Part shown: positions 36,510 to 55,082 of the stretch, one piece after another | Position numbering within the stretch: the stretch's first letter is position 1 | Layout: every line of letters starts with the position of its first letter | DNA from: Bacteroidetes bacterium UKL13-3 | GTDB taxonomy: Bacteria > Bacteroidota > Bacteroidia > UKL13-3 | DNA length: 64,000 bases | Direction of reading: 5' to 3' | NCBI GenBank assembly: GCA_001602415.1 | Contig: CP012155.1 | Location: 2,722,223-2,786,222, forward strand | Position numbers and translations under genes: made by a program | Notes under the pieces: model-generated | What the model was told of the DNA's origin: nothing | The model's database searches: none | What the model saw: only the letters and a program-made list of their open reading frames with translations

Positions 36510-36531
36510 TCTCTAATTGTTATTTATAACC

Positions 36532-38981: not shown

Positions 38982-39007
38982 ACCCCACATACATTTGAGC
39001 AAACAAA

Positions 39008-39065
39008 GAGCACTTTTGCATCCTTTAACTCCTAATACGGTAGTTAAAGGATGCAAATATTGCTC
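39008..39065. other. 58-base hairpin before the first cassette (possible attI region or terminator)
   Basis: TTTGCATCCTTTAACT (39015-39030) pairs perfectly with 39042-39057 around an 11-base loop. An outer GAGCA/TGCTC stem (39008-39012 and 39061-39065) extends it. There is no T-run, so it is not a plain terminator. It ends 10 bases before GTTATAAGTA (39076), the start of cassette 1, exactly where an attI site would be expected. Confidence 0.55.
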
Positions 39066-39106
39066 CTATAAGCTAGTTATAAGTAATGCTAAAACGACCC
39101 ATTAAA

Positions 39107-39904
39107 ATGAAAATTTACACGCTATTAGTTATTTATCTTGTAGTTCATGTAGACTTATTTGCGCAAGACTTTGAGAATGAAATTAGAAATCTCAAAACTA
39201 ATGAGGAAATACAAAATTATTGGCTCAGATTAAAAGAATTAGACCAAAATCATAGAGGCTTAGAAGCCATAGATACTAATGACAACAATAATTACAAGAA
39301 AGCTATTCTTACAATCAAACATCATGGATTTCCAGCACAATCGAAAATTCCATTTGTTATTGCTGTTCATCAGCAATCGACATTCGTAAATGAATATTAT
39401 TTCCCAATATTTTATTCAGCATATCAAACCGGAGTAGCTGACTCTAATTGGTTCTACCATTACTTGCGCGGACTTTACAGAAAACGCTTTGACCGTGACT
39501 TAATTCGTGGCAGACAAATTGAACACGCAGACGTTGATTCAATTCTTGTATATCTTACTCCTTTTCTCAATAAGACTTGTGACTACAGTATCAATCGATT
39601 TGATTCATTATTCAACTTATATAATTTTGAGATTAGCAAGATCACGACCCAAGACACCATTAGCGCATGGAGAAATGAGGACAACGATTGGATTTATTTA
39701 TATAAGTGCGCTGATAGGACTTATTTTCAAAAAGTTTGGCGTGACAAATCAAACGGCTGGCCACAAGAAGTTAAACTTTTTAACGGTAAAAATCGTTATG
39801 ACTTCGCATTCAAAACTCATGTAGACTATGTGATTATTGAGAATAAAAAACTATACTTCATTCAAGAATTTAAGCCGACAGAAATTTACTCAGCGACACC
39901 ATAA
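39107..39904 (+). CDS. Cassette 1: secreted protein of unknown function
   Basis: From ATG 39107 the 265-residue product begins with a signal peptide (MKIYTLLVIYLVVHVDLFAQ); the in-frame ATG 39086 is at the cassette edge and less likely. No known domain was recognised. The mature part is mixed alpha/beta with conserved-looking aromatic stretches (NEYYFPIFYSAYQTGVADSN, WRNEDNDWIYLY). The cassette runs 39076-40043: its first 16 bases are complementary to the 16 bases ending at 39922 (one mismatch). It is the first cassette after the recombinase. Confidence 0.7.
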   Translation: MKIYTLLVIYLVVHVDLFAQDFENEIRNLKTNEEIQNYWLRLKELDQNHRGLEAIDTNDNNNYKKAILTIKHHGFPAQSKIPFVIAVHQQSTFVNEYYFPIFYSAYQTGVADSNWFYHYLRGLYRKRFDRDLIRGRQIEHADVDSILVYLTPFLNKTCDYSINRFDSLFNLYNFEISKITTQDTISAWRNEDNDWIYLYKCADRTYFQKVWRDKSNGWPQEVKLFNGKNRYDFAFKTHVDYVIIENKKLYFIQEFKPTEIYSATP

Positions 39905-39915
39905 AATAGCACTAC

Positions 39916-40050
39916 TTATAACAGCGGTCGTGGCGGCAATTGGCGCTAGTGTTCAGTGTTTGGGTATTTCGTTTCCGTAAATTATTTATCTTAGCTCGAC
40001 AATTAAACGTTTCGCAAGCGCCAACTGCGCCAGGCCGCAGAACGTTAGCG
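39916..40050 (+). other. attC-like recombination site A
   Basis: A 135-bp imperfect inverted repeat. The R'' end is TTATAAC. The left arm continues AGCGGTCGTGGCGGC, then AATTGGCGCT. The right arm is AGCGCCAACTGCGCCAGGC, then CGCAGAACGTTAGCG with R' GTTAGCG at 40044. The arm pair TTGGCGCT/AGCGCCAA differs from other sites (TTGCCG/CGGCAA) on both sides at once, so the stem is preserved. The ~65-base loop has TTATCTTAG, shared by all sites except for an A/G change (TTATCTTGG in C and F). Confidence 0.85.
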
Positions 40051-40105
40051 GTAATGGTATCAAACAGTCAGAAACATAGTTCTAACCAAAACTAAAGACA
40101 GACAT

Positions 40106-40804
40106 ATGATAGAAAAAGTATCAATGACAATTGTATATGCACCTTTCTTACTATTTGTAACAGGTTTATTTTTTTATATAATAAACATTGTAAAGCTTTA
40201 TCGACAGGACAAATTATTTGAGTTGAAACTATCTAAAGAGAAATTTTTCGACTTTGCAATTCTAGTTTTGAGATGGTATTTATCCTATTATATGTTTGAC
40301 TACGGTTGGGGTAAAATGACAGGTGACCAGTTTGGACATAGAAGTGTTGAGATATTGAATACCCCGTTGAAAGATGTCGATAAATTTCATTTAGCTTGGT
40401 ATCTATTCAGCCTAGACAAGACATTTGACATAGTTATTGGTCTTATGCAAATTATCGGAGCAGTTTTAATCGTGGTTAACAGGACAGTTTTGGTTGGTGC
40501 GCTATTGTTATTACCTATATTGGGACAAATATTTTTAGTTGACCTTGCATTCACCTCAAATATGTTCGGAGCTGCTTTGCCAATCAGACTAGTTTGCATG
40601 ATACTTTCAGACCTTCTCATTCTATTTTACCACAAGGACAGAATGATTTTAATTTGGAACAATCTGACAAAAGGGACAACTACAAAATTCAAATACAAGT
40701 GGTGGGTTTTTATTCTACTTCCCCTATTGGGTTTGCTTACCGACTTTGGATTTGCAACCTTAACCTATCCATTCAAACTATTAATTAACCTATTGACAAA
40801 ATAA
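40106..40804 (+). CDS. Cassette 2: DoxX-like integral membrane protein
   Basis: The 232-residue protein has about six hydrophobic segments. The part LRWYLSYYMFDYGWGKMTGDQFG (residues ~55-77) and the following helices resemble DoxX/DoxD-like membrane proteins, whose roles are poorly defined (redox or thiosulfate-related in a few cases). The similarity is partial, so the family call is tentative. The cassette spans 40044-40957 and its ends are complementary over 13 of 14 bases (GTTAGCGGTA, then TGG). Confidence 0.65.
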   Translation: MIEKVSMTIVYAPFLLFVTGLFFYIINIVKLYRQDKLFELKLSKEKFFDFAILVLRWYLSYYMFDYGWGKMTGDQFGHRSVEILNTPLKDVDKFHLAWYLFSLDKTFDIVIGLMQIIGAVLIVVNRTVLVGALLLLPILGQIFLVDLAFTSNMFGAALPIRLVCMILSDLLILFYHKDRMILIWNNLTKGTTTKFKYKWWVFILLPLLGLLTDFGFATLTYPFKLLINLLTK

Positions 40805-40831
40805 AATGGAGACAGACGACAAAACCACTAC

Positions 40832-40964
40832 CGCTAACAGCACCCAAAAGCTATTGCCGTTAGTTTGTTGTATTTGGGCTTTTCGTTCCCGCAATTTTAT
40901 TATCTTAGCTTGACAATTAAACGCTTCGCAATCGGCAACAGCTCTTGGCTGCGGAACGTTAGCT
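40832..40964 (+). other. attC-like recombination site B
   Basis: A 133-bp inverted repeat. Left arm CGCTAACAGCACCCAAAAGC, then TATTGCCG; right arm CGGCAACAGCTCTTGGCTGC, then GGAACGTTAGCT. The inner pair CCAAAAGC/GCTCTTGG replaces the CTTGCGC/GCGCAAG of sites C-F on both arms. The loop carries TTATCTTAGCTTGAC. Confidence 0.85.
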
Positions 40965-40981
40965 GCAAGCATAAAAAGCCT

Positions 40982-42379
40982 ATGACATATAAACACACAG
41001 AAATAGACATAATAAGTGAAAGTCCCTTTCAAAATTGCAAACTTGGAAGACAGAATTACGCGAATATTCTTACGTCAATTGTAGAGAGTTTTCCCGAAGG
41101 GTTTGTTTTAGCAATAAATAATAAATGGGGAACAGGAAAAACCACATTTGTTAAAATGTGGGAACAGACATTAAAAAATTCAGGATATAAAACTATTTAT
41201 TTTAATGCTTGGGAAAACGACTTTGAGGACAATCCTTTAACAGCATTTGTTGCCGAACTACAAGTAATAGACAAGAAAGGAGATGACAAGTTTAACACAG
41301 TTGTAAAAAATGCAGCACTCATTGCAAAAAACGTTGCCCCTGGATTACTAAAAGCTATTGTCAATAAATATATTGATTCAGAGACGTTGACTGAAGCAAT
41401 TTCAAATACCTCAAAAAGTGTTCTAGAAATATTTGAGGAAGATGTTAAGGAATACTCTAAGAGAAAAGAATCTATTTCTAAATTCAAAAAAAGTCTATCG
41501 GAATTTGTTGCAAATGAATCAAATGAAAAGCAACTGATATTCATAATTGATGAGCTCGACAGATGTCGACCAAATTACGCAGTGTTGCTGCTAGAACAAA
41601 TTAAGCACTTCTTTTCTGTTCCAAATATTGTTTTCATTTTGTCTATAGATAAAGAACAATTAGGAAATGCAATTCGAGGAGTATATGGTTCTGAGAAAAT
41701 TGATGCTAATGAATACCTAAGACGATTTATTGATATTGAATATTCAATTCCAGAACCAGAAAAGGGGAAATTCTTTGACTATTTGTACAACTATTTTGAG
41801 TTTGACAACTTCTTTAGAGCACCTCAAAGAAATAGTTATCATGGACTCCAATACGACATGGATGACTTTAAGGAGACAAGCAAAGCTCTAATTAGTAGCC
41901 TCACCCTACGACAGCAAGAGAAGGTCCTATCTCATACAAGAATGGCTTTAAGAGCATTTGATTATAACAGTTATTTGCTTCCTCCAATTTTTATATTTCT
42001 ATCTTACATTAAGTCAATTCGTCCAGACTTTTATACCACTTTATCCGACAAATCAGCAACAATAAAAGATGTTCAAGATGAATTTTATAAGATAGTGAAA
42101 CCCTTTATAACTGAAGACACTAAAGTTATATTCTCAAAAATTGAAGCTTATCTTTTAAGGTTCTATGAAAACGACAAAAGTCAATTTAGAAATAGTTCCG
42201 AACTGTTTGAAAAAAGCCAAACGAGCAACGAGCATTTGCTAAAAATTGAATCGAAAATTGACAGTAATATGCTATTAAGAATTTTAACCAATGACAGATT
42301 CAATTTTGACTATAGAGACTTAAAATTGTCATACTTCTTGAACAGACTTAATCTTACAGACACGATTAAGACCAGCTAA
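40982..42379 (+). CDS. Cassette 3: KAP-family P-loop NTPase
   Basis: From ATG 40982 the protein has 465 residues; the frame is open further upstream but that part runs through attC site B. The KAP signature is clear: Walker A NNKWGTGKTTFVKMWEQTL (about residue 47), YFNAWENDFEDNPLTAF, and Walker B LIFIIDELDRCRP (about 183) followed by FSVPNIVFILSIDKEQL. No membrane segments are seen, so it is likely a cytoplasmic KAP ATPase. Some KAP NTPases take part in phage defence, so a defence role is possible but not shown. The cassette spans 40958-42517. Confidence 0.9.
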   Translation: MTYKHTEIDIISESPFQNCKLGRQNYANILTSIVESFPEGFVLAINNKWGTGKTTFVKMWEQTLKNSGYKTIYFNAWENDFEDNPLTAFVAELQVIDKKGDDKFNTVVKNAALIAKNVAPGLLKAIVNKYIDSETLTEAISNTSKSVLEIFEEDVKEYSKRKESISKFKKSLSEFVANESNEKQLIFIIDELDRCRPNYAVLLLEQIKHFFSVPNIVFILSIDKEQLGNAIRGVYGSEKIDANEYLRRFIDIEYSIPEPEKGKFFDYLYNYFEFDNFFRAPQRNSYHGLQYDMDDFKETSKALISSLTLRQQEKVLSHTRMALRAFDYNSYLLPPIFIFLSYIKSIRPDFYTTLSDKSATIKDVQDEFYKIVKPFITEDTKVIFSKIEAYLLRFYENDKSQFRNSSELFEKSQTSNEHLLKIESKIDSNMLLRILTNDRFNFDYRDLKLSYFLNRLNLTDTIKTS

Positions 42380-42391
42380 GAAAATGCCAGC

Positions 42392-42524
42392 AGCTAACAG
42401 CAATCTTGCGCAATTGCCGTTATCATCGTTAAATTCAGTATTTCGTTTCGCTTTTGTTTTTTATCTTGGTAGACAGATTTTCGTTCCGTACTCGGCAACA
42501 GCGCAAGGCCGCGGAACGTTAGGG
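42392..42524 (+). other. attC-like recombination site C
   Basis: A 133-bp inverted repeat. Left arm AGCTAACAGCAATCTTGCGC, then AATTGCCG; right arm CGGCAACAGCGCAAGGCCGC, then GGAACGTTAGGG. The loop has TTTCGTTTCGC and TTATCTTGG. R' starts at 42518. Confidence 0.85.
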
Positions 42525-42534
42525 GTAAGTTAAA

Positions 42535-43083
42535 ATGACAAACAAGACCAAGCTAATTCTTACACTTTTTATATTGACTGTGCTATCTTACTTTCCTTTG
42601 ACAGAAATGCTTGGAATAGAAATCAGATGGTACACTCTCGCTATGGTGACTAACGCGCTTTTCTTTGTTTTCCTTTTCTCATTCCTAGTGACAGTTTATT
42701 ACCAGACAATTAAGAATTTTAATGGCACTTGGCATTTATTAATTTTATTTTCTCTTCCATTCTTATTTCTATATATCTGCATGGTTGGACTAGTTGCAAG
42801 ACCAGTTTATTGGCAAGACAATCGAACATTTAAGAACCGTAGTGGTGACCATGAATTCTTAATTTACCAGACATTTGGCTTTGGATTTATTGGAGGCGAC
42901 ATTAAAGGTCGGTTCATTGTAACAAGACATAAAGACAACAAAGTGTTTAGACCAATCCACATTAAATCAGACTCTTCAATTCCGAAAGAAATAAGTGATC
43001 GTTGTTTATTTGCTATTGACTCCATTCCCAAAAGTATTCTACTAGACAATGACACTTATGACCTTATTCACTCACAAGACTAA
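42535..43083 (+). CDS. Cassette 4: small membrane protein of unknown function
   Basis: The 182-residue protein has three hydrophobic segments in its first ~95 residues (LILTLFILTVLSYFPL, YTLAMVTNALFFVFLFSFLV, LLILFSLPFLFLYICMVGL). A soluble C-terminal half of about 85 residues follows (GDHEFLIYQTFGFGFIGGDI). No family was recognised. The ATG lies 17 bases into the cassette (42518-43215), whose ends match over 14 of 15 bases. Confidence 0.65.
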   Translation: MTNKTKLILTLFILTVLSYFPLTEMLGIEIRWYTLAMVTNALFFVFLFSFLVTVYYQTIKNFNGTWHLLILFSLPFLFLYICMVGLVARPVYWQDNRTFKNRSGDHEFLIYQTFGFGFIGGDIKGRFIVTRHKDNKVFRPIHIKSDSSIPKEISDRCLFAIDSIPKSILLDNDTYDLIHSQD

Positions 43084-43088
43084 CCTAC

Positions 43089-43222
43089 CCCTAACAGCGG
43101 CCTTGCACCATTGCCGGTATATCGCTAAATTTCAGCATTTCATTTCGCATTTATTTTTATCTTAGCTTGACAATTAAACGTTACGCAATCGGCAACTAAC
43201 GCAAGGCTGCGGAACGTTAGCG
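43089..43222 (+). other. attC-like recombination site D
   Basis: A 134-bp inverted repeat. Left arm CCCTAACAGCGGCCTTGC, then ACCATTGCCG; right arm CGGCAACTAACGCAAGGC, then TGCGGAACGTTAGCG. The right arm has TAAC where other sites have AGC. The loop carries TTATTTTTATCTTAGC. Confidence 0.85.
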
Positions 43223-43231
43223 CCAATATTA

Positions 43232-43978
43232 ATGAGGACACTATTAACAATTTTAGCACTGACATTTTTGACTTGGACTGCAAAAGGACAATTTCAATTT
43301 GAGAAATATACTGCCATAAAATATAAGTCCTTCAATGACTGGAAAACCTACGACAAGACAGAAAAGGAAAAGAAAGTTCATAGCACTTTAACAATACCAA
43401 ATTTCTTTGACAATGGCGACACTCTTACTATTCAGTTAACCTCGTTCACAGACCATTGGGAAGACAACTCAATTATTAGAGTATTCCGTAACAAGACTGA
43501 AACCCAAAAGATATTTGAAAACATGGCATTTGAGCCTACAAGCTTGGACACCTTAAGAATTGCTGACATAAACGGTGACGGGCTTCAAGACATCAAAATT
43601 ATTTCAGCATATATGGGTAATGGGACAGCTGCTTTAAATATTAGAGTTATTTATTTCTTTCAGCTGCCTGACAATAGTTTCAAAAAAATATCCTTTGCGG
43701 ACAAAATGAGCGAAAATCGACAAGAGAGAGACTTTGATGGTGATGGAAATTTTGAAATTATAACTATGAACCTAATTGGACATGAAGACCACAGTTATTG
43801 GTTATTCAACATTTTCAATTATAGGAATGGTGGACTAGTAAATGTAAATTCCAAAGACAATTATCCAATTATGATTCAATTTCTGTATCGTTACAATTAT
43901 GAAGTAACTAACAAAATCAGCAGAGATAAAATGAAAACTTTTGCGCTGACATTACCGGACGACTATGACGCGAAATAG
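43232..43978 (+). CDS. Cassette 5: secreted protein with EF-hand/FG-GAP-like calcium motifs
   Basis: The 248-residue protein has a signal peptide (RTLLTILALTFLTWTAKGQ) and two DxDGDG-type loops, ADINGDGLQDIKI (about residue 112) and RDFDGDGNFEII (about 168). These are typical of calcium-binding beta-propeller or VCBS/FG-GAP-like repeats. It may be a periplasmic or surface protein; the function is unknown. The cassette spans from 43216 to the IS-interrupted site E. Confidence 0.7.
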   Translation: MRTLLTILALTFLTWTAKGQFQFEKYTAIKYKSFNDWKTYDKTEKEKKVHSTLTIPNFFDNGDTLTIQLTSFTDHWEDNSIIRVFRNKTETQKIFENMAFEPTSLDTLRIADINGDGLQDIKIISAYMGNGTAALNIRVIYFFQLPDNSFKKISFADKMSENRQERDFDGDGNFEIITMNLIGHEDHSYWLFNIFNYRNGGLVNVNSKDNYPIMIQFLYRYNYEVTNKISRDKMKTFALTLPDDYDAK

Positions 43979-43987
43979 AAATACTGG

Positions 43988-44115
43988 CGGTAACAGCGGT
44001 CTTGCGCCATTGCCGTTAACTTACTAAAATTCAGCATTTCGTTTCGCATTTATTTTTATCTTAGCAGGACAAATTAACTTTCCGTACTCGGCAACAGCGC
44101 AAGGCCGCGGAACGT
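43988..44115 (+). other. attC-like recombination site E, split by an IS110-family element
   Basis: Left arm CGGTAACAGCGGTCTTGCGC, then CATTGCCG; right arm CGGCAACAGCGCAAGGCCGC, then GGAACGT. The sequence then jumps into the IS at 44116 and the R' box resumes as TAGCGG at 45365. Rejoined, the site is 134 bp like the others and starts the cupin cassette. Confidence 0.85.
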
Positions 44116-44149
44116 CCAAGATCAAAAACAAGTTTTTTCTTAATATATT

Positions 44150-45148
44150 TTAGGCAGCATATTGGCTTAGTTCAACATATGGTGTGCCGCGATTGATAGT
44201 TGCAAAAACCCTTGATACAAGTTTGTTTCTGATTATATTTAGTACTACCATTTTAGGTTTCCCTTCTTCTACTCGCTTTTCATAGTATTGCTTTAGTTCC
44301 TTATCGTGTTGTATGGCACTGATGGCCGACATGGATAATAGGCTCTTCATTTTTCGGTCACTTATGGGATGAATTTTCATGCGCCCGTTAATACTCGTGC
44401 CTGACTGATGTGGGAATGGCACTAAACCACAATAACAAGAAAACTGGCGCCAACTTGCAAAGCGTGTGTAGTTGTGCGTATGCACTAACATTTGCACTGC
44501 TAAAACCAATCCAACTCCCTTTACACTTCGACTTAGTTTATAATGTTTATGCATCTGATTATCCGTTTTGATTAAACTCACCATTGCATTCTCTAACTTT
44601 TTCATTTGTTGTTCCAGGTGGCAAATGGTTTCTGCTATCATCGCCTCTGATACATCTTCTGTTTGTTTATTTACTGTTAGCACCTGCATTCCCTTTTCAA
44701 GGCATTTCAAAGCACGTAATTGCTTTGCTATTTGCTCCCTTAGGCTCATCATCCGTTGCAACTCAATAAGTTTCTCTGGCGGTGGCACACTGGCTACCAA
44801 CTCCTCACGATGAAGCCATGCATAACGCGCAATTTCTTTCGCATCTGCTTTGTCTGTTTTACCTCGTTTCAGCCCAATGGATCGTTTAATTTCCATTGGA
44901 TTTACACAACAATAGCGAACCTGATGCTGATGCAAATAATAACTTAAATGCAAGCAATACCAGCCTGTATGTTCAAAGCATATTACTGATTGTGTAATTA
45001 AAACCTTTTGTGATTTTATCCATTGTAAAATCTTTTTGTAACCACTTTCGTCATTGATAAATTGCTTGTGTAGTTGCTTGTGATGTAGGTGTACATCTAA
45101 TGTTTTTTTTGATACATCAATACCGATGGTTTCTTCAACATTTTCCAT
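44150..45148 (-). CDS. IS110-family transposase (DEDD recombinase)
   Basis: The 332-residue transposase has the RuvC-like DEDD domain: GIDVSKKTLDVHL (D, about residue 9), ICFEHTGWY (E, about 57), and GKTDKADAKEIARYA (D and D, about 95-100). A coiled-coil section leads to the Tnp_20 domain with FPHQSGTSINGRMKIHP, which holds the catalytic Ser. In IS110 elements the enzyme acts with a bridge RNA that base-pairs to target and donor. It is intact. Confidence 0.94.
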   Translation of the reverse strand: MENVEETIGIDVSKKTLDVHLHHKQLHKQFINDESGYKKILQWIKSQKVLITQSVICFEHTGWYCLHLSYYLHQHQVRYCCVNPMEIKRSIGLKRGKTDKADAKEIARYAWLHREELVASVPPPEKLIELQRMMSLREQIAKQLRALKCLEKGMQVLTVNKQTEDVSEAMIAETICHLEQQMKKLENAMVSLIKTDNQMHKHYKLSRSVKGVGLVLAVQMLVHTHNYTRFASWRQFSCYCGLVPFPHQSGTSINGRMKIHPISDRKMKSLLSMSAISAIQHDKELKQYYEKRVEEGKPKMVVLNIIRNKLVSRVFATINRGTPYVELSQYAA

Positions 45149-45164
45149 AATTTCGTATTTAAGG

Positions 45165-45340
45165 ATAAAACAAAAAAACTTGCTGTGCTATAGCCTTTAA
45201 CGGGCCCTAACGCCCAATATTCCAATTAGTACTTGCAAGTCCGAATGGGGAAACGGGACTTATGCAGCTTAAAGGAATTTATTCCTACAAAACGTTTGAG
45301 TTCACCCGTTTCTCTTTCGGTTAAGTTAATGTTTTTTTCT
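45165..45340 (-). ncRNA. Candidate bridge RNA of the IS110 element
   Basis: The region upstream of the transposase folds into several hairpins on the minus strand. GAAACGGG/CCCGTTTC (45250-45257 and 45305-45312) encloses a ~47-base loop, and smaller hairpins such as ACTTGCAAGT and GGGCGTTAGGGCCC follow. The first loop contains AACGTT (45291-45296) and the second region contains CGTTAG (45207-45212). Both resemble the interrupted AACGTTAGCGG target. Ends are approximate and the fold was not computed. Confidence 0.45.
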
Positions 45341-45423
45341 TGATGCAAACTAAAGGCCAAACGTTAGCGGTAATTATAAAGACGACACAAAGACACGAAC
45401 ATTTAATTTAAAAATAAATAAAC

Positions 45424-45981
45424 ATGCCAACAAAAGGACAAATTTTAACCAATCCAGACTCTGGAGACATTTATGAGTTTTTAGAAACAGCTAAAGACAC
45501 CAATGGACAAAGAGTTACCATGAAAATGACTCTTAAATCAAAAGGTAAACTGGTGCCTAATCATTTCCATGCATTACAAGACGAACATTTTGAAGTTGTT
45601 TCAGGTAATTTGACAATATTGCTTGACGGCAAGAATCAAGTTTTGGCGCAAGGAGAAAAAATGACGCTACCGAAAAACAAACCACACAATCATTACAATG
45701 CTAGCAATGAAACTGTTATTTTAATTCAATCTGTTACACCTGCCTTAGACTTTGACTATCTATTAGAAAATATTATAGGACTTACCATTGACGGAAAAAT
45801 GCCGAATGGAAAAGCAGGATTAATTCAGGAATTGGTAACGTTAAAATACTTGGACAGCAAAAGTTACCTTGCCGATATTCCGCAAGGACTGCAGAAATTG
45901 CTAATGAATGTCGTAGGGCCTATTGGACGTATATTTGGGTATAGAGCAATTTACAAGAAATATTCGGACATAGAAAAATAA
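45424..45981 (+). CDS. Cassette 6: cupin-domain protein
   Basis: The 185-residue protein has a cupin barrel in its first ~110 residues: motif 1 LVPNHFHALQDEHFEVVSGN (metal-binding His and Glu) and motif 2 LPKNKPHNHYNASNE. The C-terminal part is helical and uncharacterised (LQKLLMNVVGPIGRIFGY). The substrate is unknown. The cassette starts at GTTAGCGGTA (45363, at the right IS junction) and ends at 45992; the two ends are complementary over 14 of 15 bases, which shows that the IS entered between this cassette and its predecessor. Confidence 0.85.
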   Translation: MPTKGQILTNPDSGDIYEFLETAKDTNGQRVTMKMTLKSKGKLVPNHFHALQDEHFEVVSGNLTILLDGKNQVLAQGEKMTLPKNKPHNHYNASNETVILIQSVTPALDFDYLLENIIGLTIDGKMPNGKAGLIQELVTLKYLDSKSYLADIPQGLQKLLMNVVGPIGRIFGYRAIYKKYSDIEK

Positions 45982-45992
45982 CTACCGCTAAC

Positions 45993-46201
45993 AAATAGCG
46001 CTTAAAACGAAGTGTACCCACTTCGTTTTAAGCGTGTGTTGACTGAAGCGTGACGGGTTTTTTTGCGAGTTATGTGTTTTGAATGTTTGGGATTATTTTT
46101 GGCTGCTTGGTGGGTGTATTTTTAGTTGGTGCAGCTTTACTTTTTTAGCGCTTTAATGCGCTTTTTTTGTGCTTTTTGTTTTGCAGGCTGGTAACTTTTG
46201 T
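45993..46201. mobile_element. IS91-like element, ori-end remnant (copy 1)
   Basis: 209 bases nearly identical to the first part of the complete copy at 49653. It starts directly after the R'' box of cassette 6 (CGCTAAC) and is cut off after GTAACTTTTGT. It holds the end hairpin CGCTTAAAACGAAGTG/CACTTCGTTTTAAGCG (16-bp perfect stem, TACC loop) and a second AGCGC/GCGCT hairpin. The rest of the element and of the attC site is lost. 46202-46393 shows no gene or known motif. Confidence 0.85.
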
Positions 46202-46393
46202 AGGCATCCCCAAAAATAGTACGATTTAAAAGTAGAAAATAATTCTAACTTTAAATTGTAAGGGCGACCGTTTAACCATCAACATTTGTGCTCACAATGC
46301 ACGACAAAAGCCAACCCTCTCAAAATTAAAAGAGCTGTTTTATCATCACACATGCCGACCCAAAAACAGCACATTTAATTTTACCCAACCGCA

Positions 46394-46771: not shown

Positions 46772-46797
46772 TATTTTTTTAAGTTTTAACGCAATAA

Positions 46798-46843
46798 TGT
46801 TGCGTTTTTAAATGTAATAATTATATTTGCAGCATTGTTGCAT
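46798..46843. promoter_or_regulatory. Divergent Zur-type operators over a TAnnTTTG promoter
   Basis: AACGCAA-N5-TTGCGTT (46798-46816) and a second palindrome, TGCAGCATTGTTGCA (about 46828-46842), lie upstream of both genes. In the plus direction TTG (46800-46802) and TATATTTG (46822-46829) are spaced 19 bases and match the Bacteroidota -33/-7 elements. Binding at either palindrome would block the promoter, fitting zinc repression. Confidence 0.75.
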
Positions 46844-46978
46844 TAAGCTAATTATTCTTTAATGATATATTATAAAAAACAAAAAAGACTTTAACTAATA
46901 GAATGCGTTGGTCAATCTCACGCTTAAAAGTAAATCAGTATTGCATTCAATATTAAAACTTTAATCAAATAAAAAAAA

Positions 46979-48172
46979 ATGAAAAAATTATTTTACTTTA
47001 TGGTTATTGCTGTTTCAATTACAGCTTGTAAAAAGGATGATGAACAAACAGAGCCTCAAGCTTTATTAAAAGAATATAGGTTTCTTAGGATGATAGTTTC
47101 TGATGAGCAAACGAATCAAATCACTTACCTTAACTTATATGACGATACCAAAATTAACTTTGAGACAAAATTTCCTAAATCGGCTGTTTACACCTCTGGA
47201 TCAGGAAGATTTGCCGCCATTGCACATACAAATAATAATTTAGCAGAAACGTTTGACTCAGGCTTAGAATTTCACGGTAACCATGTAGATACGAAAGGTA
47301 CTCCAAAATTTGGATTGATGGTAAGTGAATCTCTTAAGCCCACCCATTTTAAAGCAAAAAATAATGAACTTTTATTCTTTAATGATGGGGATGCATCACT
47401 TTCGTATGGTTCAGAATCAAGCATTCACACACAAGCTAAAATGACAACTATTAATACTGGGTTAATTGCTCATCATGGAGCTATGGCACATTTTTCGAAT
47501 GGAACTTATGCAGTTACATCAAAAGATAATTCAGTTAAGGGGCCACTTCCTGAAAGAGTAATTATAATTGATAAAACAGGCAAAGAATTACATAAATCAA
47601 CAATTGCAACCACTGGTATTCATGGTAGTGCCACCGATGGGGAAAATGCTCTTTTTGGATCTGCTAGTGGGATTTTAGTTATTTCGTCTGCTGGAGCCCA
47701 ACGATTAATTCCTTATCCAAATGATTTTGGTACCGCTTGGTTTGGCACTATATTAGAAACTTCTATAGGCAATAAATTCATCGGTTATACTGCTGCTAAA
47801 GGAGCTTATTTGATCGATATTTCTGCAAATACTATATCCCCATTGATGGTGAATACCGATATCATGCAGATTAAAACCAGTTACGATTTATCAAAACTTG
47901 GTGTTTTATTACATTCAGGTTTAATGAAAATTATTGATTTAAGAACAAATAAAACTGATTTTGAACAAAACATTACAGAGGCAACAGATAAATCATCAAC
48001 TCAAAAACCACAAATGGTGATGAGCAATAGGTATATCTATATAGCTTTACCTAAATCGGGTGAAATTCAAAAAACACGAATTGCTCAGCCTAGTACAGCT
48101 ACTAAAATAAAAGTAAGTGCAAATCCCTATCGCATAGCAATTATAGGACACGAATCTGACGAATCTCATTAA
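46979..48172 (+). CDS. Lipoprotein with AztD-like beta-propeller (zinc-related)
   Basis: The 397-residue protein has a lipobox (FMVIAVSITACKK) and then a repeated-blade sequence with His-rich sites: LEFHGNHVDTKGTPKF, LIAHHGAMAHFSNGTYAVTS, TTGIHGSATDGENALFGSAS. This resembles the AztD periplasmic zinc chaperone family, though the match was judged by eye. It follows the Zur-type operators by about 135 bases and precedes a COG0523 metallochaperone, so it is probably a zinc-starvation protein. Confidence 0.6.
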   Translation: MKKLFYFMVIAVSITACKKDDEQTEPQALLKEYRFLRMIVSDEQTNQITYLNLYDDTKINFETKFPKSAVYTSGSGRFAAIAHTNNNLAETFDSGLEFHGNHVDTKGTPKFGLMVSESLKPTHFKAKNNELLFFNDGDASLSYGSESSIHTQAKMTTINTGLIAHHGAMAHFSNGTYAVTSKDNSVKGPLPERVIIIDKTGKELHKSTIATTGIHGSATDGENALFGSASGILVISSAGAQRLIPYPNDFGTAWFGTILETSIGNKFIGYTAAKGAYLIDISANTISPLMVNTDIMQIKTSYDLSKLGVLLHSGLMKIIDLRTNKTDFEQNITEATDKSSTQKPQMVMSNRYIYIALPKSGEIQKTRIAQPSTATKIKVSANPYRIAIIGHESDESH

Positions 48173-48283
48173 GTTGTTTTGCTAATAATTAATCTGTGTT
48201 GTTCAGATAATACTCAATATTAAAGTTTTTTTTAACTGTAATTTTTCATTAAACCCTATTTCACTGCTTAAACATTTTATGTT

Positions 48284-49498
48284 ATGCAAAATTACTTAAT
48301 AAAAAAATTACCAGTAACAGTATTAAGCGGTTTCTTGGGAGCAGGAAAAACAACTTTGCTCAACCACATTTTGCATAACAAAGACGGCTTAAAAGTAGCC
48401 GTAATTGTAAACGATATGAGTGAAGTAAATGTAGATGCAAGACTTGTGAATGAGCAAAATGTGCTATCACGAACCGAAGAAAAATTAGTGGAAATGAGCA
48501 ACGGTTGTATCTGTTGCACTCTTCGGGAAGACTTGATGATAGAAGTGGAGAAATTGGCTAATGAAGGACGATTTGATTACTTGCTTATTGAAAGCACAGG
48601 CATTAGCGAACCAGTTCCTGTAGCCCAAACATTTAGTTTTGTGGACGAAGAAAAAGGAATTGACCTTTCAAAATTTAGCTATATTGACACAATGGTTACA
48701 GTGGTGGACTGCTTCAATTTCTTCAACGACTTTGGAACAAACGAGTTATTGGTTGACCGCAAATTAACCGATATGGAAGGCGATTACAGAACCATTGTAA
48801 ATTTGCTGACCGACCAAATAGAATTTGCCAATGTGATTATCCTAAACAAGACTGATTTGGTAGATGCTAAAACGGTTGGACTTTTAAAAGCATCTATTCA
48901 AAAGCTCAACCCAAGTGCAAAAATTATCAGTTCCAATTTTAGTAAAGTAGAACCAAAAGAAATTTTAAACACCAAACTGTTTGACTTTGAAGAGGCGCAA
49001 TCTTCGGCAGGTTGGCAAAAGGAATTAGAAGGTGGCACACATACACCCGAAACAGAAGAATACGGAATTTCATCTTTCGTATTTAGAAGCCAAAAACCTT
49101 TTCACCCAGAACGATTTTGGAAATACATCAATGAAGAATATCCGAGCAGTATAATCAGAGCCAAAGGTCTTTTTTGGCTGGCATCACGCCCCAATGACGC
49201 AATTAATTTTAGTCAAGCAGGCGGTTCTTCAAGACTTGAAAAAGCAGGCGTTTGGTGGGCAAGTATGACTTTTAATGAGCGATTAAAATACCAATCGTTT
49301 GCCGACAACCGAGAATATATTGAAAGTAAATGGAGTAAGCAATGGGGTGATAGAATGAACGAGTTGGTATTTATTGGACAAGACATTGAAAAAGAAAAAA
49401 TGATAGCAGACCTTGAAAAATGTTTGTTGCAGGACAGCGAACAAATACAATTTGAAAGTAAAAAGGCATTTGCCGACCCCTTCCCGAAAGACATTTAA
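48284..49498 (+). CDS. COG0523 GTPase metallochaperone (ZigA-like)
   Basis: The 404-residue G3E GTPase has Walker [17 protein letters not shown] (about residue 15), the metal motif GCICC (about 75, CxCC) and NKTD (about 196). A CobW-C-like C-terminal domain follows (about 255-370). Family members deliver zinc to client proteins under zinc limitation. It lies with the Zur-like regulator and the AztD-like lipoprotein, which makes zinc the likely metal. A hairpin terminator follows. Confidence 0.9.
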
Positions 49499-49503
49499 CT
49501 TGA

Positions 49504-49533
49504 AAATGTGCCACCGCTTTTGGTGGCACATTT
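49504..49533 (+). terminator. Terminator after the COG0523 gene
   Basis: AAATGTGCCACC and GGTGGCACATTT form a perfect 12-bp stem around GCTTTT. The T-rich tail is short. Confidence 0.75.
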
Positions 49534-49918
49534 GCTTTTCCCAACAGCACAAAGCCAAACAAAAAAATCAAAAGAGCCACCAAGCCAACGCACCACAAAC
49601 ACTGCAAACAATTGACAACAGAGCAACGACAGACAAAACGCCAGCACCTAACAAATAGCGCTTAAACGAAGTGTACCCACTTCGATTTAAGCGTGTGTTG
49701 ACTGAAGCGTGACGGGTTTTTTTGCGAGTTATGTGTTTTGAATGTTTGGGATTATTTTTGGCTGCTTGGTGGGTGTATTTTTAGTTGGTGCAGCTTTACT
49801 TTTTTAGCGCTTTAATGCGCTTTTTTTGTGCTTTTTGTTTTGCAGGCTGGTAACTTTTGTGTGTTGTTTTAGGTTTTGGGCAATGCGCGGCCTAGTTGCC
49901 TGTTTTAGGCAATTAAGG

Positions 49919-51091
49919 TTATGCAATATTTAACGCTTGCTGGCGGGCTTGGTGTAGCAATGCCAATGGTGGTGCATTGGCTTCAAAACTCATTAAGCGT
50001 ATCATTACTCCGGTTTTACAGCATGGGCATTTTTCTATGTCTATTCCATGCTTTTGCAACAGCATTTGTTGCCACGTTATTAATGCTTGTTGTCGTTTGG
50101 GTATTATACCCATTTGCATTTGTTGGGTGCGCAACTTGGGTTTGTTACGGCTGGCCAATATGCCGTAATGCCGTATTTTTCTGCCCCCTGCTGGTAGTAT
50201 ATGCATACTAAACCTGCGCAAAAACTCTACCCCGCTTAACTCCATTACTTTTTGCTGCCCTCCACTGCGGTAATCTTTGTAAGTAAACTTTACCGTTTGG
50301 TTATTTACATCTAACAAGCGATGATTGCTTATGGCTATTTTATGGCTGTAGCGTCCTAAGTATTCTATTACTTGCTTTGGGCCGGCAAAGGGTTGTTTGG
50401 CATACACTACCCAACTTTTTTGATACAAAATTTCGCGCAAGGTTTTGTTTAGCTCTTGCTTTTGCGAGGTGAGCAGTTGCCTAAATCCTTCCATAAATTT
50501 TGCCCGATAAACTTTGCTTAATGCTTTTACCGGAAACAAAAAATCGCGTTTGTATTTACTCGGTTTCCAAAAACCTGCACGGCTTACTCCTCCTGATGGT
50601 ACTATCATGTGTACGTGCGGGTGTAAACTTAAGTTTTGCCCCCAAGTGTGTAACACACTTATCATACCTACTTGTGCGCCTAAGTGTTTTTCGTCTGCTG
50701 CAAATGTTTTTATGGTATCGCTGCTGGCTTTAAACAATAGGTTATACAGCGCTATTGGGTATTGCAGGCAATACTTGTTTAGCTCTTGCGGTAAGGTAAA
50801 TACTACATGAAAATAATGGGTGTTTAACAGGTCTGATTCGCGTTTTTCTATCCACCTTTCTTTTTGGGTGGTTTGGCACTTGGGGCAATGACGATTACCG
50901 CAACTATTATAACTTATGCGTAAATGTCCGCAGGTGTTACACCCATCTACATGTCCGCCCAAGGCTTGTGTACGGCATTGCAATATGGCTTGCAGTACTT
51001 TGGCTATGTGTGCATGTGGCCGGTGTTGTTTATAATAGTTTGCTTGGTGGTGTTGTATTACTTGTGCCAGTTCGTAATTAGGCTTTACCAT
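49919..51091 (-). CDS. IS91-family HUH transposase
   Basis: The ~390-residue transposase has an N-terminal zinc finger (CNTCGHLRISYNSCGNRHC, then CPKC), the HUH motif HPHVHMIVPSGG (about residue 160) and the Tyr motif YLGRYSHKIAISNHR (about 265), which nicks single strands at the ori end. C-terminal CPCC follows. Start ATG 51091 is preferred over 51109. It overlaps the preceding recombinase gene by 14 bases, so they are likely co-translated. Confidence 0.92.
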   Translation of the reverse strand: MVKPNYELAQVIQHHQANYYKQHRPHAHIAKVLQAILQCRTQALGGHVDGCNTCGHLRISYNSCGNRHCPKCQTTQKERWIEKRESDLLNTHYFHVVFTLPQELNKYCLQYPIALYNLLFKASSDTIKTFAADEKHLGAQVGMISVLHTWGQNLSLHPHVHMIVPSGGVSRAGFWKPSKYKRDFLFPVKALSKVYRAKFMEGFRQLLTSQKQELNKTLREILYQKSWVVYAKQPFAGPKQVIEYLGRYSHKIAISNHRLLDVNNQTVKFTYKDYRSGGQQKVMELSGVEFLRRFSMHILPAGGRKIRHYGILASRNKPKLRTQQMQMGIIPKRQQALITWQQMLLQKHGIDIEKCPCCKTGVMIRLMSFEANAPPLALLHQARQQALNIA

Positions 51092-51887
51092 GGCTGTAAA
51101 GCGTATCAAACGGACTGTGCACTGCCTTGGCTTTTATTTGCGCTATGTGTAAATATATCATAGTGGTGCGCAAATCTGCATGTCCTAGTGCTTGTTGTAT
51201 GCTGTGCAAATCAACCCCATCTTCTAAAAGGTGTGTGGCAAAGCTGTGGCGTAGTGTATGCATCGAGGCCGACTTTTTTATATCGGTGCGTTTTAAGGCT
51301 TCGTTTATTACGTATTGTATGCTACGTTCGCCCATGGGTTGGCCGGGTGTTAATCCTTCAAACAAATAAACTTGTGGGTTTACTTCGGCCAAATACATGC
51401 CTAACCTATCGGCCAATAATTTTGATAAAACTACATACCGATCTTTTTTGCCTTTACCTTGTCTAATGTGTATGCATTTGCGGTTTACATCTACATCACT
51501 TATTTTTATTAGCCTAAGCTCGTTCATGCGTAAACCTGCTGCATAAGCAAACGCTAACAAGTAACGATGTTTAAATGATGGTGGTGCTTTAAACAATTGT
51601 TTGCACTCTTGCTTTGATAATACTACTGGTAAGGTTTGGTTTTTTTTGATACTGGGTAGTTTAATGGCTGCATCTTCCATACCAAATATTCTGAACCAAA
51701 AACGTAATGCAAAAACTGCATGCTTAAAGTAGCTGATGGATTTTCCTTCTACCTCGGTGCTTCTGTAAAAATAAGCGTTTAACTCATCAATACTTATGTG
51801 ATGAGGCAACCTATTAAAGTGCAAGGCTACGTAAGCCAACGAGCGACCATAGTTGGTTAACAATCCTTTGCTTAATTGTTTTACCAT
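51078..51887 (-). CDS. Tyrosine recombinase carried by the IS91-like element
   Basis: The 269-residue Xer-like protein has GLRMNELRLI (Arg I), KGKKDRYVV (Lys), HTLRHSFATHLLEDG (HxxR intact), LGHADLRTTMIYLH (His and Tyr). It differs in sequence from the array-head recombinase, which has Asn instead of His. In-frame codons continue upstream (TTFLEQV-like) to a stop at 51971; an ATG-led frame there is out of phase by one base next to an A7 run, so a few N-terminal residues may be lost. It is cargo of the element and may help resolve or target it. Confidence 0.85.
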   Translation of the reverse strand: MVKQLSKGLLTNYGRSLAYVALHFNRLPHHISIDELNAYFYRSTEVEGKSISYFKHAVFALRFWFRIFGMEDAAIKLPSIKKNQTLPVVLSKQECKQLFKAPPSFKHRYLLAFAYAAGLRMNELRLIKISDVDVNRKCIHIRQGKGKKDRYVVLSKLLADRLGMYLAEVNPQVYLFEGLTPGQPMGERSIQYVINEALKRTDIKKSASMHTLRHSFATHLLEDGVDLHSIQQALGHADLRTTMIYLHIAQIKAKAVHSPFDTLYSHGKA

Positions 51888-52059
51888 TACCTGCTCTAAA
51901 AAATAATCGTAAGCTTGGCTAACGCCTATTACCGATAACTTTGCTTGATGTACAATTGTTGATGTTGTGTTTTTTTAATGTCATAACTTTATTGTTTTGA
52001 TTTTATTTCTTACAAAGTTTATCCTATTTTGCAATGAAATGCTACCGCAGGTTTAGTTC

Positions 52060-52185
52060 AACAGCGGTCTTGCGCCATTGCCGTTAAACTGCTAAATTCA
52101 AGCCTTTATTACGCATTATTTTTTATCTTGGTTGACAGTTTCTTCTCCGCAAACGGCAACAGCGCAAGGCGTGGGAACGTTATAC
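52060..52185 (+). other. attC-like recombination site F (body), split by IS91 copy 2
   Basis: Left part AACAGCGGTCTTGCGCCATT, then GCCG; right arm CGGCAACAGCGCAAGGC, then GTGGGAACGTTATAC. Its R'' box (ACCTAAC, 49646-49652) is on the far side of the IS91 element. Rejoined it is about 130 bp. R' GTTATAC at 52179 starts the Crp cassette. The loop has TTATCTTGG. Confidence 0.82.
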
Positions 52186-52229
52186 GCAATGGTAGCAGAC
52201 CCCACAAACTAAAAGACATCAAGACCCAA

Positions 52230-52799
52230 ATGGACATTTTATTCAAAACCTTTATAGACCATTTTTCTGCTAATCAAAAATTAAGCGAAAAAACAATAGC
52301 AGAAATATGTAATCATTTGTCAGTTTTAAATTTGGACAAAAAGCACGTACTTATTAAAGAAAACCAACGACACGACTTTGCTTATTTTGTAGTTAAAGGT
52401 GCTGTGAGAAGTTACTATCTGAAAGACGGTGTAGAAGTGAACACTTGGTTTGCTTTGGAGAATGATATGGTTGGTTCATTGCATAACTTTAAGGACCATC
52501 CTTCGAGAGAAACTATTGAATTAATTGAAAATAGTACGCTGATTTCAATCAATCTAAAACGGGTAAAGCCTTTAATGTTTTCAAATATTCAAATTGCTAA
52601 TTTTATCAATGCAATAATAGAAGACTACGCTCTATTTTTAGAAGACAAAATTTACTTTTCCCAAATGATGAGTTCAATAAATAAGTATCTAATATTGCTT
52701 GACAAAGAACCACAACTTTTCCAACGTATCCCGCTTACTTACATTGCTTCCTTTCTTGGAATTTCAAGAGAAACACTTAGCCGTTTGAGAGCAAAATGA
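52230..52799 (+). CDS. Crp/Fnr-family transcriptional regulator (cassette 8, first gene)
   Basis: From ATG 52230 the protein has 189 residues; the frame is open upstream but only into the attC site. The cNMP-binding-like barrel (about residues 25-115: HVLIKENQRHDFAYFVVKGA, SYYLKDGVE) is followed by a C-terminal HTH (IPLTYIASFLGISRETLSRLR). No clear cAMP-binding residues are seen, so the effector is unknown. It lies just before an acyltransferase gene in the same cassette and probably regulates it. Confidence 0.88.
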   Translation: MDILFKTFIDHFSANQKLSEKTIAEICNHLSVLNLDKKHVLIKENQRHDFAYFVVKGAVRSYYLKDGVEVNTWFALENDMVGSLHNFKDHPSRETIELIENSTLISINLKRVKPLMFSNIQIANFINAIIEDYALFLEDKIYFSQMMSSINKYLILLDKEPQLFQRIPLTYIASFLGISRETLSRLRAK

Positions 52800-52800
52800 T

Positions 52801-52820
52801 TTTGTGACATTTGTCAAATG
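52801..52820. promoter_or_regulatory. Crp/Fnr-type palindrome upstream of the acyltransferase
   Basis: TGACA-TT-TGTCA (52805-52816) within TTTGTGACATTTGTCAAA is a perfect palindrome between the regulator stop and the acyltransferase start, a likely operator for the neighbouring regulator. Confidence 0.6.
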
Positions 52821-52857
52821 AATTCATTTTTAAGCATTGCAATTTTGCAGTCTAAAA

Positions 52858-53967
52858 ATGATAATAAAGATGAATGTAACAACTCAAAACAATAGACTTT
52901 TGTCCATAGACCTTGCAAGAGGTTTGGCAGTATTTTTTATGATTGCTGTACATACACTTGAGGTATTTGCAAGTGAAGAAGTAAAAAACTCGGTATTCGG
53001 ACAAATTATAGAGTTTTTCGGAGGTCCGCCAGCCGCACCAGTTTTTATGACTTTGATGGGATTTTCATTTATGTATTCAAGGAAATCAGAATTGAAACCA
53101 AGATTATTACGTGGCTTTAAAATATTTTTGTCAGGCTACATTCTAAATATCCTAAGAGGTGTCATTCCATTCACTCTTTCTACTCAATTAGAAATGGATA
53201 TTGCAAAAACATTCCCTTTAGAAAAATTAAATGAATACACTATTTTAACCATAGTTGACATTTTGCAATTTGCTGGAATTGCATTAATAATTATGGCACT
53301 TATTCAAGAGTTTAAAATCAACAAGTATATAATACTATTTACTGCATTTTTGATTAGTATGCTTTCACCATTTCTTTGGGGCTTAAACCTAAACATACCA
53401 GTAATAGACCAAATTTCAGAACTGTTTTGGGGAGACCAACCAATTGAATTTAGTTTTATCGCAAATAAAATTGCATTCCCAGTATTTCCTTGGTTATCTT
53501 TTCCGCTACTGGGTATGTTTCTTGGCGACACAATGAAAAACTCAAAAGACCAAAGTACGACTTTTAAATATTTGGGAATAATTGGCATTTTAGTTCTGGT
53601 TATTGGAGTTGCCATTTCATATTCAAACGTAGATTACCATTTCAACGACTACTATCATAGCCGACAAGGTGGAATGTTATTTATGTGCGGCTTTGTAGTC
53701 TTTTGGCTTTACATTAACAAATTAATTCTAGACAAAGTACCTCAGAACAAGTTTTTTGACTTACTTTTTAGGTGGAGCAATGGAGTAACAAACATTTACT
53801 TTGCTCAATGGATAATTATTATTTGGAGCATTGCTTTTTTCGGTATTAACCAAAGCTCATACGTCACCATTATTTTATTAATTTTGACATTCACGTTTAT
53901 ATCACACTTTATAAACGAATTCATAATATTCAGACAAAATAAGAACAAAATAAAACAGACAGAATGA
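52858..53967 (+). CDS. DUF1624/heparan-acetyltransferase-like membrane protein (cassette 8, second gene)
   Basis: The ~369-residue protein (ATG 52858; ATG 52870 also possible) has about ten hydrophobic segments. Its start RLLSIDLARGLAVFFMIAVH (SIDxARG) and PAAPVFMTLMGFSFMYSR are typical of HGSNAT/DUF1624-like and related membrane acyltransferases. It probably acetylates a surface or wall glycan, but the substrate is unknown. It follows the Crp-like gene and its palindrome in the same cassette, which ends at R'' TTATAAC (54005). Confidence 0.75.
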   Translation: MIIKMNVTTQNNRLLSIDLARGLAVFFMIAVHTLEVFASEEVKNSVFGQIIEFFGGPPAAPVFMTLMGFSFMYSRKSELKPRLLRGFKIFLSGYILNILRGVIPFTLSTQLEMDIAKTFPLEKLNEYTILTIVDILQFAGIALIIMALIQEFKINKYIILFTAFLISMLSPFLWGLNLNIPVIDQISELFWGDQPIEFSFIANKIAFPVFPWLSFPLLGMFLGDTMKNSKDQSTTFKYLGIIGILVLVIGVAISYSNVDYHFNDYYHSRQGGMLFMCGFVVFWLYINKLILDKVPQNKFFDLLFRWSNGVTNIYFAQWIIIIWSIAFFGINQSSYVTIILLILTFTFISHFINEFIIFRQNKNKIKQTE

Positions 53968-54005
53968 GAATATACGAGGTGACAGGAAAAACCACTGCTT
54001 ATAAC

Positions 54006-55004: not shown

Positions 55005-55082
55005 CTCGTCCTGAAAAAAGTTTACACTTATTACTAAAAAGATCCTAAAGTACAAACTTGCCTTGTAGCGAATATGTCCTCA

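What the first reader, a model, noticed from the sequence alone, without database searches (positions are those of the whole stretch)
39076..54005. Integron-like cassette array in a Bacteroidota chromosome
Between a tyrosine recombinase gene and a deletion edge lie at least eight gene units, nearly all pointing the same way, each followed by a ~130-135-bp imperfect inverted repeat ending in GTTA (sites A-F). Six genes start only 16-62 bases after the unit boundary, as in integron cassettes. Cargo differs in every unit while the sites are related. Integrons are known mainly from Proteobacteria and a few other phyla; this one has non-canonical boxes (only GTTA is constant of GTTRRRY) and larger site loops. 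It may be a distinct cassette system.
Basis: partly seen in the sequence, partly recalled or inferred. Interest (0 to 1): 0.95.

Follow-up and report, generated by a model that had tools for sequence, protein, structure and literature searches.

The report
Integrons without the standard integron integrase
This bacterial chromosome carries rows of gene cassettes laid out like an integron, but beside a recombinase that lacks the protein segment thought essential in integron integrases; that recombinase likely captures and shuffles the cassettes, and matching cassette sites occur in many sampled genomes of the same phylum.

Summary
Six recombinase copies (three full, three partial) in this genome run into a near-identical attI-like stretch (one copy more divergent) ending at GTTA; a different cassette follows in each. 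Each cassette's first bases complement its own last bases: 18 units, 147 of 198 matches, shuffled mean 84, none of 20,000 shuffles reached it; 21 units in other organisms, 173 of 231 versus 79. Sites form a covarying hairpin. One 968-bp cassette sits, 100% identical, in two arrays, the flanks diverging at GTTA. 32 of 45 sites lie within 50 kb downstream of a recombinase copy on its strand, none on the other. The recombinase lacks the IntI-specific insertion. In 296 sampled genomes of the phylum 137 have sites; 32 of 33 with a close recombinase have them, against 104 of 262 others. Against: in the order, 22 of 23 genomes without a recombinase match also have sites. Activity is inferred. Verdict: an integron-type cassette system likely run by an I2-less recombinase, a new variant of a known kind.

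The parts
38052..38981 (+). tyrosine recombinase gene (XerA-like, no IntI insertion); this copy has Asn where the HxxR histidine of its relatives stands, so it may be weak or inactive; exact start codon uncertain
39015..39079 (+). attI-like site: 16-bp perfect stem (39015-39030 with 39042-39057), then TATAAGCTA|GTTA
39076..40043 (+). cassette U1 (predicted secreted protein, 272 aa); 100% identical copy at about 110.86-111.83 kb of the genome between other neighbours
39920..40047 (+). hairpin site A
40044..40957 (+). cassette U2 (predicted membrane protein, DoxX match just below the cut-off)
40836..40961 (+). hairpin site B
40958..42517 (+). cassette U3 (KAP-type NTPase, gene about 40982-42379, matches candidate phage-defence family PDC-S20, 550 bits)
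42396..42521 (+). hairpin site C
42518..43215 (+). cassette U4 (predicted membrane protein)
43093..43219 (+). hairpin site D
43216..44114 (+). cassette U5 (predicted secreted protein), its site cut by IS110
43992..44114 (+). hairpin site E
44115..45362 (-). IS110-family element at the 3' end of site E; boundaries approximate
45363..45992 (+). cassette U6 (cupin), site cut by IS91-like element; second copy at about 1,654,459-1,655,088 with a different left neighbour
45993..46250 (.). remnant end of the IS91-like element; right limit approximate
46250..49652 (.). stretch with Fur-family regulator, lipoprotein and CobW-type GTPase; only a cassette right end (CACCTAAC to 49652) is recognised
49653..52059 (-). 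IS91-like element: IS91 transposase (49919-51109) plus its own tyrosine recombinase (51078-51887)
52060..52182 (+). hairpin site F (left arm displaced by the IS91-like element)
52179..54005 (+). cassette U8 (cyclic-nucleotide-binding regulator, acyltransferase-type membrane protein), site cut by IS91-like element
54006..55010 (-). truncated IS91-like element, right edge of the array; right limit approximate

Best explanation
This is an integron-type gene-cassette platform: a tyrosine recombinase gene, an attI-like site and a row of cassettes each closed by a hairpin site, in which the recombinase likely inserts and excises circular cassettes at GTT although it lacks the insertion that defines integron integrases. 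Shown from sequence: the attI-like junction with six different first cassettes; cassette-specific complementary ends; covarying hairpins; one identical cassette in two contexts; same-strand clustering behind the recombinase; co-occurrence across the phylum sample; absence of the IntI insertion. Inferred: a circular cassette closes its own attC, which folds (probably the bottom strand; long stem with about 4-5 unpaired bases on one side beside the GTTA arms); the recombinase joins it to attI by one strand exchange between G and TT, since the two partners share little more than GTTA; cassettes nearest attI may be read through from upstream. In this genome the 118-kb and 1.65-Mb copies, which keep the HxxR histidine, are the likelier active enzymes; the window's copy carries Asn there.
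For: Junction: five of six copies end ...TATAAGCTA|GTTA, the 1.65-Mb copy ...TATAACTTA|GTTA, and six different cassettes follow. Own-end complementarity: 7 window units; 18 genome units 147/198 vs mean 83.9, best of 20,000 shuffles 115; 21 units in 10 loci of other organisms 173/231 vs 79.2, best shuffle 119. At one arm position the two ends disagree in 18 of 18 own units. Covariation score 0.507 vs shuffled 0.161 and at most 0.094 when slid; 16 of 22 pairs change on both sides (alignment fitted to the structure, so it leans that way; the count of further pair types was reached by 24 of 500 shuffles). U1, 968 bp, 100% identical in two arrays with flanks diverging at GTTA on both sides (the BLAST query was cut at the unit limits, the divergence is read). 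32 of 45 sites (E<=1e-5) within 50 kb downstream on the strand of a recombinase copy, 0 on the other strand, 2.1 expected if sites were independent, which array members are not. Order: 63 of 64 genomes have sites, 41 of 64 a recombinase match at E<=1e-40, one each in all but three. Model-free arm search behind the recombinase: score 8-9 of 9 in 17 of 30 loci whose recombinase has the short spacing, 1 of 17 others, 3 of 282 mismatched controls. Draft contigs (L074-L102) end within 210 bp downstream of the recombinase in 10 of 29, upstream in 1 of 29; four end at AGTT or AGTTA. Phylum: 32 of 33 genomes with a close recombinase have sites vs 104 of 262. 1 of 62 genomes of the order has an IntI over the curated cut-off, not this one.
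Against: No recombination, circular cassette or expression was observed. 22 of the 23 genomes of the order without a recombinase match at E<=1e-40 still have sites, and 15 of 45 high-quality ones lack such a match; in the phylum sample 104 of 262 genomes without a close recombinase have sites. This could mean decayed arrays, a more distant recombinase or another enzyme. 13 of 45 own sites lie away from any attI copy. Five of 18 own units score only 2-7 of 11, and six of 21 elsewhere 4-6. 13 of 30 family loci showed no matching own end in the model-free search. The window's own recombinase has an altered HxxR histidine. Contig breaks at attI may come from repeated platform copies rather than a mixed population. 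The standard attC model could not be run.
Confidence: 0.82

Rival explanations
1. The arrays are ordinary integron leftovers (CALIN-like): a true IntI made them and was lost, and the XerA-like recombinase is a bystander.
For: One genome of the order has an IntI over cut-off (G005); 22 of 23 genomes of the order without a recombinase match, and 104 of 262 sampled in the phylum without a close one, have sites.
Against: All six recombinase copies in this genome end in the attI-like stretch with a different cassette at GTTA; close recombinase and sites co-occur in 32 of 33 genomes; 61 of 62 genomes of the order have no IntI over cut-off.
Confidence: 0.09
2. Cassettes move as double-stranded DNA, Xer/dif fashion; the inverted repeats are double-stranded recombinase sites and the hairpin is incidental. 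(A different mechanism for the same system, so its odds overlap with the best explanation.)
For: The enzyme scores above the XerA-type model (227.4 vs cut-off 220) and lacks the I2 part that the literature ties to single-strand substrates (PMC7790495, abstract and passages).
Against: attI and attC share little more than GTTA, too short an overlap for two strand exchanges (general knowledge of tyrosine recombinases, not a call); most pairs of the stem covary (16 of 22); arms are cassette-specific and complementary within a unit.
Confidence: 0.2
3. The units are moved by the IS91-like element or its own tyrosine recombinase.
For: All 24 distinct contexts of its exact end that were read follow AAC, nearly all of cassette-type arms; its recombinase is 42% identical to the cassette recombinase over 216 residues.
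Against: Window units U1-U4 with intact sites carry no such element, and units in other genera obey the same rule beside the cassette recombinase. It looks like a parasite of the sites.
Confidence: 0.04

Closest known systems
Integrons (intI-attI-attC), including sedentary chromosomal ones with long sites such as Vibrio cholerae (the comparison with Vibrio is recalled)
   Same: recombinase gene next to attI, row of cassettes, hairpin sites with GTT crossover point and arms made of the cassette's own two ends, gene starts close to the boundary, sites also found away from any platform
   Different: recombinase lacks the IntI insertion (I2); arms read GTT[A/G]NNN, then a conserved mismatch, then more cassette-specific pairs, not GTTRRRY; unpaired spacer lies almost wholly on one side; recombinase points along the array (in class 1 integrons it points away: recalled); several near-identical platforms in one genome
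IntI-bearing integrons already reported in the Bacteroidetes/Chlorobi group and Bacteroidota
   Same: same phylum-level group (passages in PMC9024848, PMC9668308, PMC2426708)
   Different: PMC2426708 kept only integrases with the IntI additional domain; PMC9024848 names Salinibacter ruber M1 as the complete integron within Bacteroidetes and notes that only In0 elements had been found there before
XerA/XerC/XerD recombinases
   Different: sits beside cassette arrays; splits from the XerC/D-type rows in the tree with 100/100 support, on the side of the IntI rows
'Integron-like' subgroup of simple tyrosine recombinases (PMC8138268, passages read)
   Different: it calls the insertion essential for integron function and, in the passages seen, describes no cassette arrays for members without it; whether this family falls in that subgroup was not tested
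IS1111/IS110 elements that target attC (PMC11187229, passages; Tetu and Holmes 2008 and Post and Hall 2009 seen there as references only)
   Same: an IS110-family element sits at the 3' end of five sites here
   Different: other host sites; here an IS91-like element aims at the other arm
CTX phage / IMEX hairpin integration by XerCD (PMC4792948, PMC7790495, passages)
   Same: a hairpin used by I2-less Xer enzymes
   Different: no array, no own recombinase, mimics a double-stranded dif site

Membership tests
Integron | recombinase gene with adjacent attI where cassettes enter | tested here: met
   six loci with a near-identical attI-like end and different cassettes after GTTA; matching own ends behind the recombinase in 17 of 30 family loci elsewhere. 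Entry itself is inferred
Integron | array of cassettes, each ORF plus one attC, same orientation | tested here: met
   window U1-U5; genome-wide the longest nearby ORF is on the array strand at 24 of 35 sites and on the other at 11, of which 7 have an IS91-cut arm
Integron | attC folds through imperfect inverted repeats; R arms come from the two ends of one cassette | tested here: met
Integron | R box GTTRRRY | tested here: not met
   GTT constant, fourth base A or G, next bases variable
Integron | match to the standard attC covariance model (IntegronFinder/HattCI) | not testable with these tools
   model not on hand; the Rfam scan gave only one chance-level match
Integron | integrase carries the IntI additional domain (I2) | tested here: not met
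   2a3v residues 201-242 face one residue here; TIGR02249 aligns in two pieces, about 1-180 and 237-315, in the family matches listed; R-to-H spacing 90-92 in family rows where it could be read, 133 in L164, L167, L175
Integron | observed integrase-driven cassette excision and insertion | not testable with these tools
   no reads or bench data
IntI protein family (TIGR02249) | score over curated cut-off 265 | tested here: not met
   208.7 bits for the window copy; none over cut-off in this genome; IntI rows L167 and L175 score 411 and 436 in the same scan
NF040815 XerA-type / 'integron integrase' model | score over curated cut-off 220 | tested here: met
   227.4 bits for the window copy; eight relatives score 197-245, five of them over 220

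The most novel reading that the evidence does not exclude
A second great class of integrons exists: folded single-stranded cassettes are captured at attI by a Xer-like recombinase that never had, or lost, the I2 domain; it is a main route of gene gain across Bacteroidota, reaches Bacillota and Spirochaetota, has its own IS91- and IS110-type parasites, and was overlooked because surveys select integrases by the IntI domain.
Probability: 0.6. Interest if true: 0.93.

Novelty: new variant of a known kind. Interest (0 to 1): 0.88.

Why it matters
The IntI extra domain is described as necessary for activity (title of Messier and Roy 2001, seen as a reference) and as the step by which integrases turned to single-strand DNA (PMC7790495 abstract). 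A natural integron-type system without it would make that claim directly testable and may show an earlier or parallel solution. It also points to a large, mostly unrecorded cassette pool: IntegronFinder 2.0 names Salinibacter ruber M1 as the complete integron within Bacteroidetes (passage), whereas 137 of 296 sampled genomes of this phylum carry matching sites.

Tried and rejected
Rfam: one chance-level match only. The two other GAACGTTA hits in the window (10533, 17306) show no site-like inverted repeat by eye and were not tested further. True IntI in this genome: none over cut-off (its 14 control genomes hold none either, so L167 and L175 serve as the positive control). attI motif counts: TATAA stands at 33-39 of 46 loci per position, but the script picked GTT by having such a motif near, so this is a description, not a test; at least five picks look wrong (L089, L102, L117, L137, L145), one of 47 loci (L138) gave none, and the script stopped with an error in its last printout. 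Stems there: mean longest perfect stem 7.2 vs 5.6 shuffled, 14 of 46 at 8 or more vs 4.3%: real in part of the loci only. Model-free arm search: given 52 of the 80 loci; one dropped for under 700 bp downstream, four had no GTT candidate, 47 counted; the one hit outside the family (L144) is taken as chance. One search looked at eight of those hits; a closing site could be folded in five (L139, L138, L121, L117, L129), without shuffle controls. Tree: 23 of 51 inner branches open, bootstrap not settled, only three IntI rows, one long IS91 row; it shows a split from XerC/D-type rows, not the order of branching with IntI. Selection in counts: one search took consecutive same-strand sites 100-4500 bp apart with GTT arms, left out IS91-cut ends and added three of six attI-first units; one search started from 25 of the 28 R2 matches (dropped: two minus-strand, one cut by a contig end) and ten loci gave units (L117, L120, L123 gave none; L104 no attI unit). 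One search scored 150 of 908 candidates, 11 per genome, so site counts are lower bounds. The 32/33 and 104/262 tally was made by hand from the lists: close = 53% identity or more, partial copies included, own genome left out. PADLOC, Pfam and NCBIfam gave little for several cargo genes. Print searches in the open library listed no paper on integrons driven by an IntI-less recombinase in Bacteroidota, judged by titles, abstract starts and the passages I opened; subscription papers and preprints are not held. On checking the calls I lowered the main confidence from 0.85 to 0.82 and raised the leftover-integron rival to 0.09, because of the genomes with sites but no recombinase match.
Full report
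What is there. The window lies in a one-contig chromosome of 3.24 Mb. At 38052-38981 is a tyrosine recombinase gene; about 95 bases after its stop stands GTTATAAG (39076), and from there run cassettes U1-U5 with hairpin sites A-E, then IS110, U6, an IS91-like remnant, a Fur/CobW stretch, a full IS91-like element, site F, U8 and a truncated IS91-like copy. Recombinase and cassettes point the same way.

The unit rule. In each unit the bases after GTT are the reverse complement of the bases before AAC at the unit's own end: seven window units give 67 of 77 matches against a permutation mean of 39.1. As found in the array, the two arms of one site match in only 4-5 of 9 positions. This is the mark of units that exist as circles, where the two ends meet and close one hairpin. 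The rule holds for 18 units across this genome (147 of 198, mean 83.9, best of 20,000 shuffles 115) and for 21 units from ten loci of other organisms, among them Algoriphagus ornithinivorans DSM 15282 and Zunongwangia mangrovi DSM 24499 (173 of 231, mean 79.2, best shuffle 119). Five of the 18 and six of the 21 match poorly (7 or less, and 6 or less, of 11). At the eleventh base of the arm the two ends disagree in all 18 own units, with further cassette-specific pairs beyond it.

The hairpin. Circularised sites of U1-U5 are predicted to fold into a long stem on either strand, with GTTA arms, about four to five unpaired bases almost wholly on one side, a second stem and a large loop. On 44 distinct sites 89.1% of cells pair; the covariation score is 0.507 against 0.161 shuffled and at most 0.094 slid; 16 of 22 pairs change on both sides (shuffled 13.2, reached by 3 of 500); further pair types 37 against 33.0, reached by 24 of 500 (alignment fitted to the model, so it leans towards it). 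The GTTA arms themselves hardly vary.

attI. Three full recombinase copies (98-100% identical) and three partial ones lie in this genome. All six continue into a stem and then GTTA: five read TATAAGCTA|GTTA, the 1.65-Mb copy TATAACTTA|GTTA, and a different cassette follows in each, two of them sharing the bases TATAAGTAA before they part. In relatives the bases differ but TATAA a few bases before GTTA or GTTG recurs. Several draft contigs stop there: 10 of 29 end within 210 bp downstream, 1 of 29 upstream; L075, L079 and L081 end at AGTTA, L098 at AGTT.

Movement. U1 with its site, 968 bp, is 100% identical in a second array, between a different sequence on the left and a different cassette on the right, the flanks parting at GTTA on both sides. 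U6 likewise has two different left neighbours, parting within a few bases of its GTTA, while its right side shares the IS91-like element and beyond. In the one congener compared, ftsZ and the peptidase gene lie on different contigs, and the stretches fetched beside them hold no blastn counterpart of the interval 36446-55089.

Distribution. Sites: 63 of 64 genomes of the order, 137 of 296 sampled across the phylum. Recombinase at E<=1e-40: 41 of 64 of the order, so 22 genomes there have sites without such a match; these may hold decayed arrays or a more distant enzyme. In the phylum sample close recombinase and sites go together in 32 of 33, against 104 of 262. A model-free search finds a matching own end behind the recombinase in 17 of 30 family loci, 1 of 17 others and 3 of 282 mismatched controls. 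Among the 17 are a Paenibacillus genome not labelled as a bin and a Spirochaetota bin, whose circularised sites are predicted to fold (-35.6 and -29.6 kcal/mol, no shuffle control); a bin may hold foreign contigs.

Cargo and parasites. U3 matches candidate defence family PDC-S20 (550 bits). Of 26 exact IS91-like ends in the genome, 24 distinct contexts were read: all 24 follow AAC, at least one (L193) without the look of a cassette arm, and in 5 of 24 a matching own start was found in the roughly 1.5 kb held upstream. The IS110 element lies at the 3' end of a site in all five copies seen, though only stretches chosen for their sites were searched.

Reading. The anatomy, the arms and the moved cassette make an integron-type system the best account. 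Because the defining IntI domain was tested and is absent, I do not call the enzyme an IntI; I call the system integron-type, likely run by an I2-less recombinase. One earlier survey kept only integrases with that domain (PMC2426708, methods passage), and PMC8138268 notes that the insertion is not fully conserved in its integron-like subgroup while calling it essential (passage). NCBI's own model name for this recombinase type already reads 'site-specific tyrosine recombinase/integron integrase'. Integrons with IntI in the Bacteroidetes group are on record. Chemistry, strand choice and present activity remain inferred.

Noticed in passing
window 45992/45993, 49652/49653, 54005/54006 and 23 further exact matches in the genome: An IS91-like element with its own tyrosine recombinase ends directly after AAC in all 24 distinct contexts read, nearly all of them cassette-type arms: it seems to target this system's sites.
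   Followed up: partly
window 44115-45362; L056, L057, L062, L066: An IS110-family element sits at the 3' end of a site in five of five copies seen, among stretches chosen for their sites.
   Followed up: partly
L042 (genome 1380628-1381287): Chimeric recombinase: first part like the IS91-associated recombinase, last part like the cassette recombinase, still followed by attI and a cassette.
   Followed up: no
window about 38072 onward; same in L039, L040: The three full recombinase copies share sequence only from about AGC[T/C]AAC|CGCGATTGG on; the platform itself seems to have moved and to start after AAC.
   Followed up: no
genome 2596238 and 2597301: Two identical sites with identical left arms in tandem, probably a duplicated cassette.
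   Followed up: no
L183 (G005:C58): The only IntI over the TIGR02249 cut-off among 62 genomes of the order; its match appears split over two frames.
   Followed up: no
L133, L135, L136, L138, L139: Family members on contigs labelled Bacillota, Spirochaetota and Undinarchaeales; some may be foreign contigs in bins, L139 (Paenibacillus sp. NFR01) is not labelled as a bin.
   Followed up: partly
order genomes: 22 genomes carry sites without a recombinase match at E<=1e-40; what moves or moved their cassettes is open.
   Followed up: no
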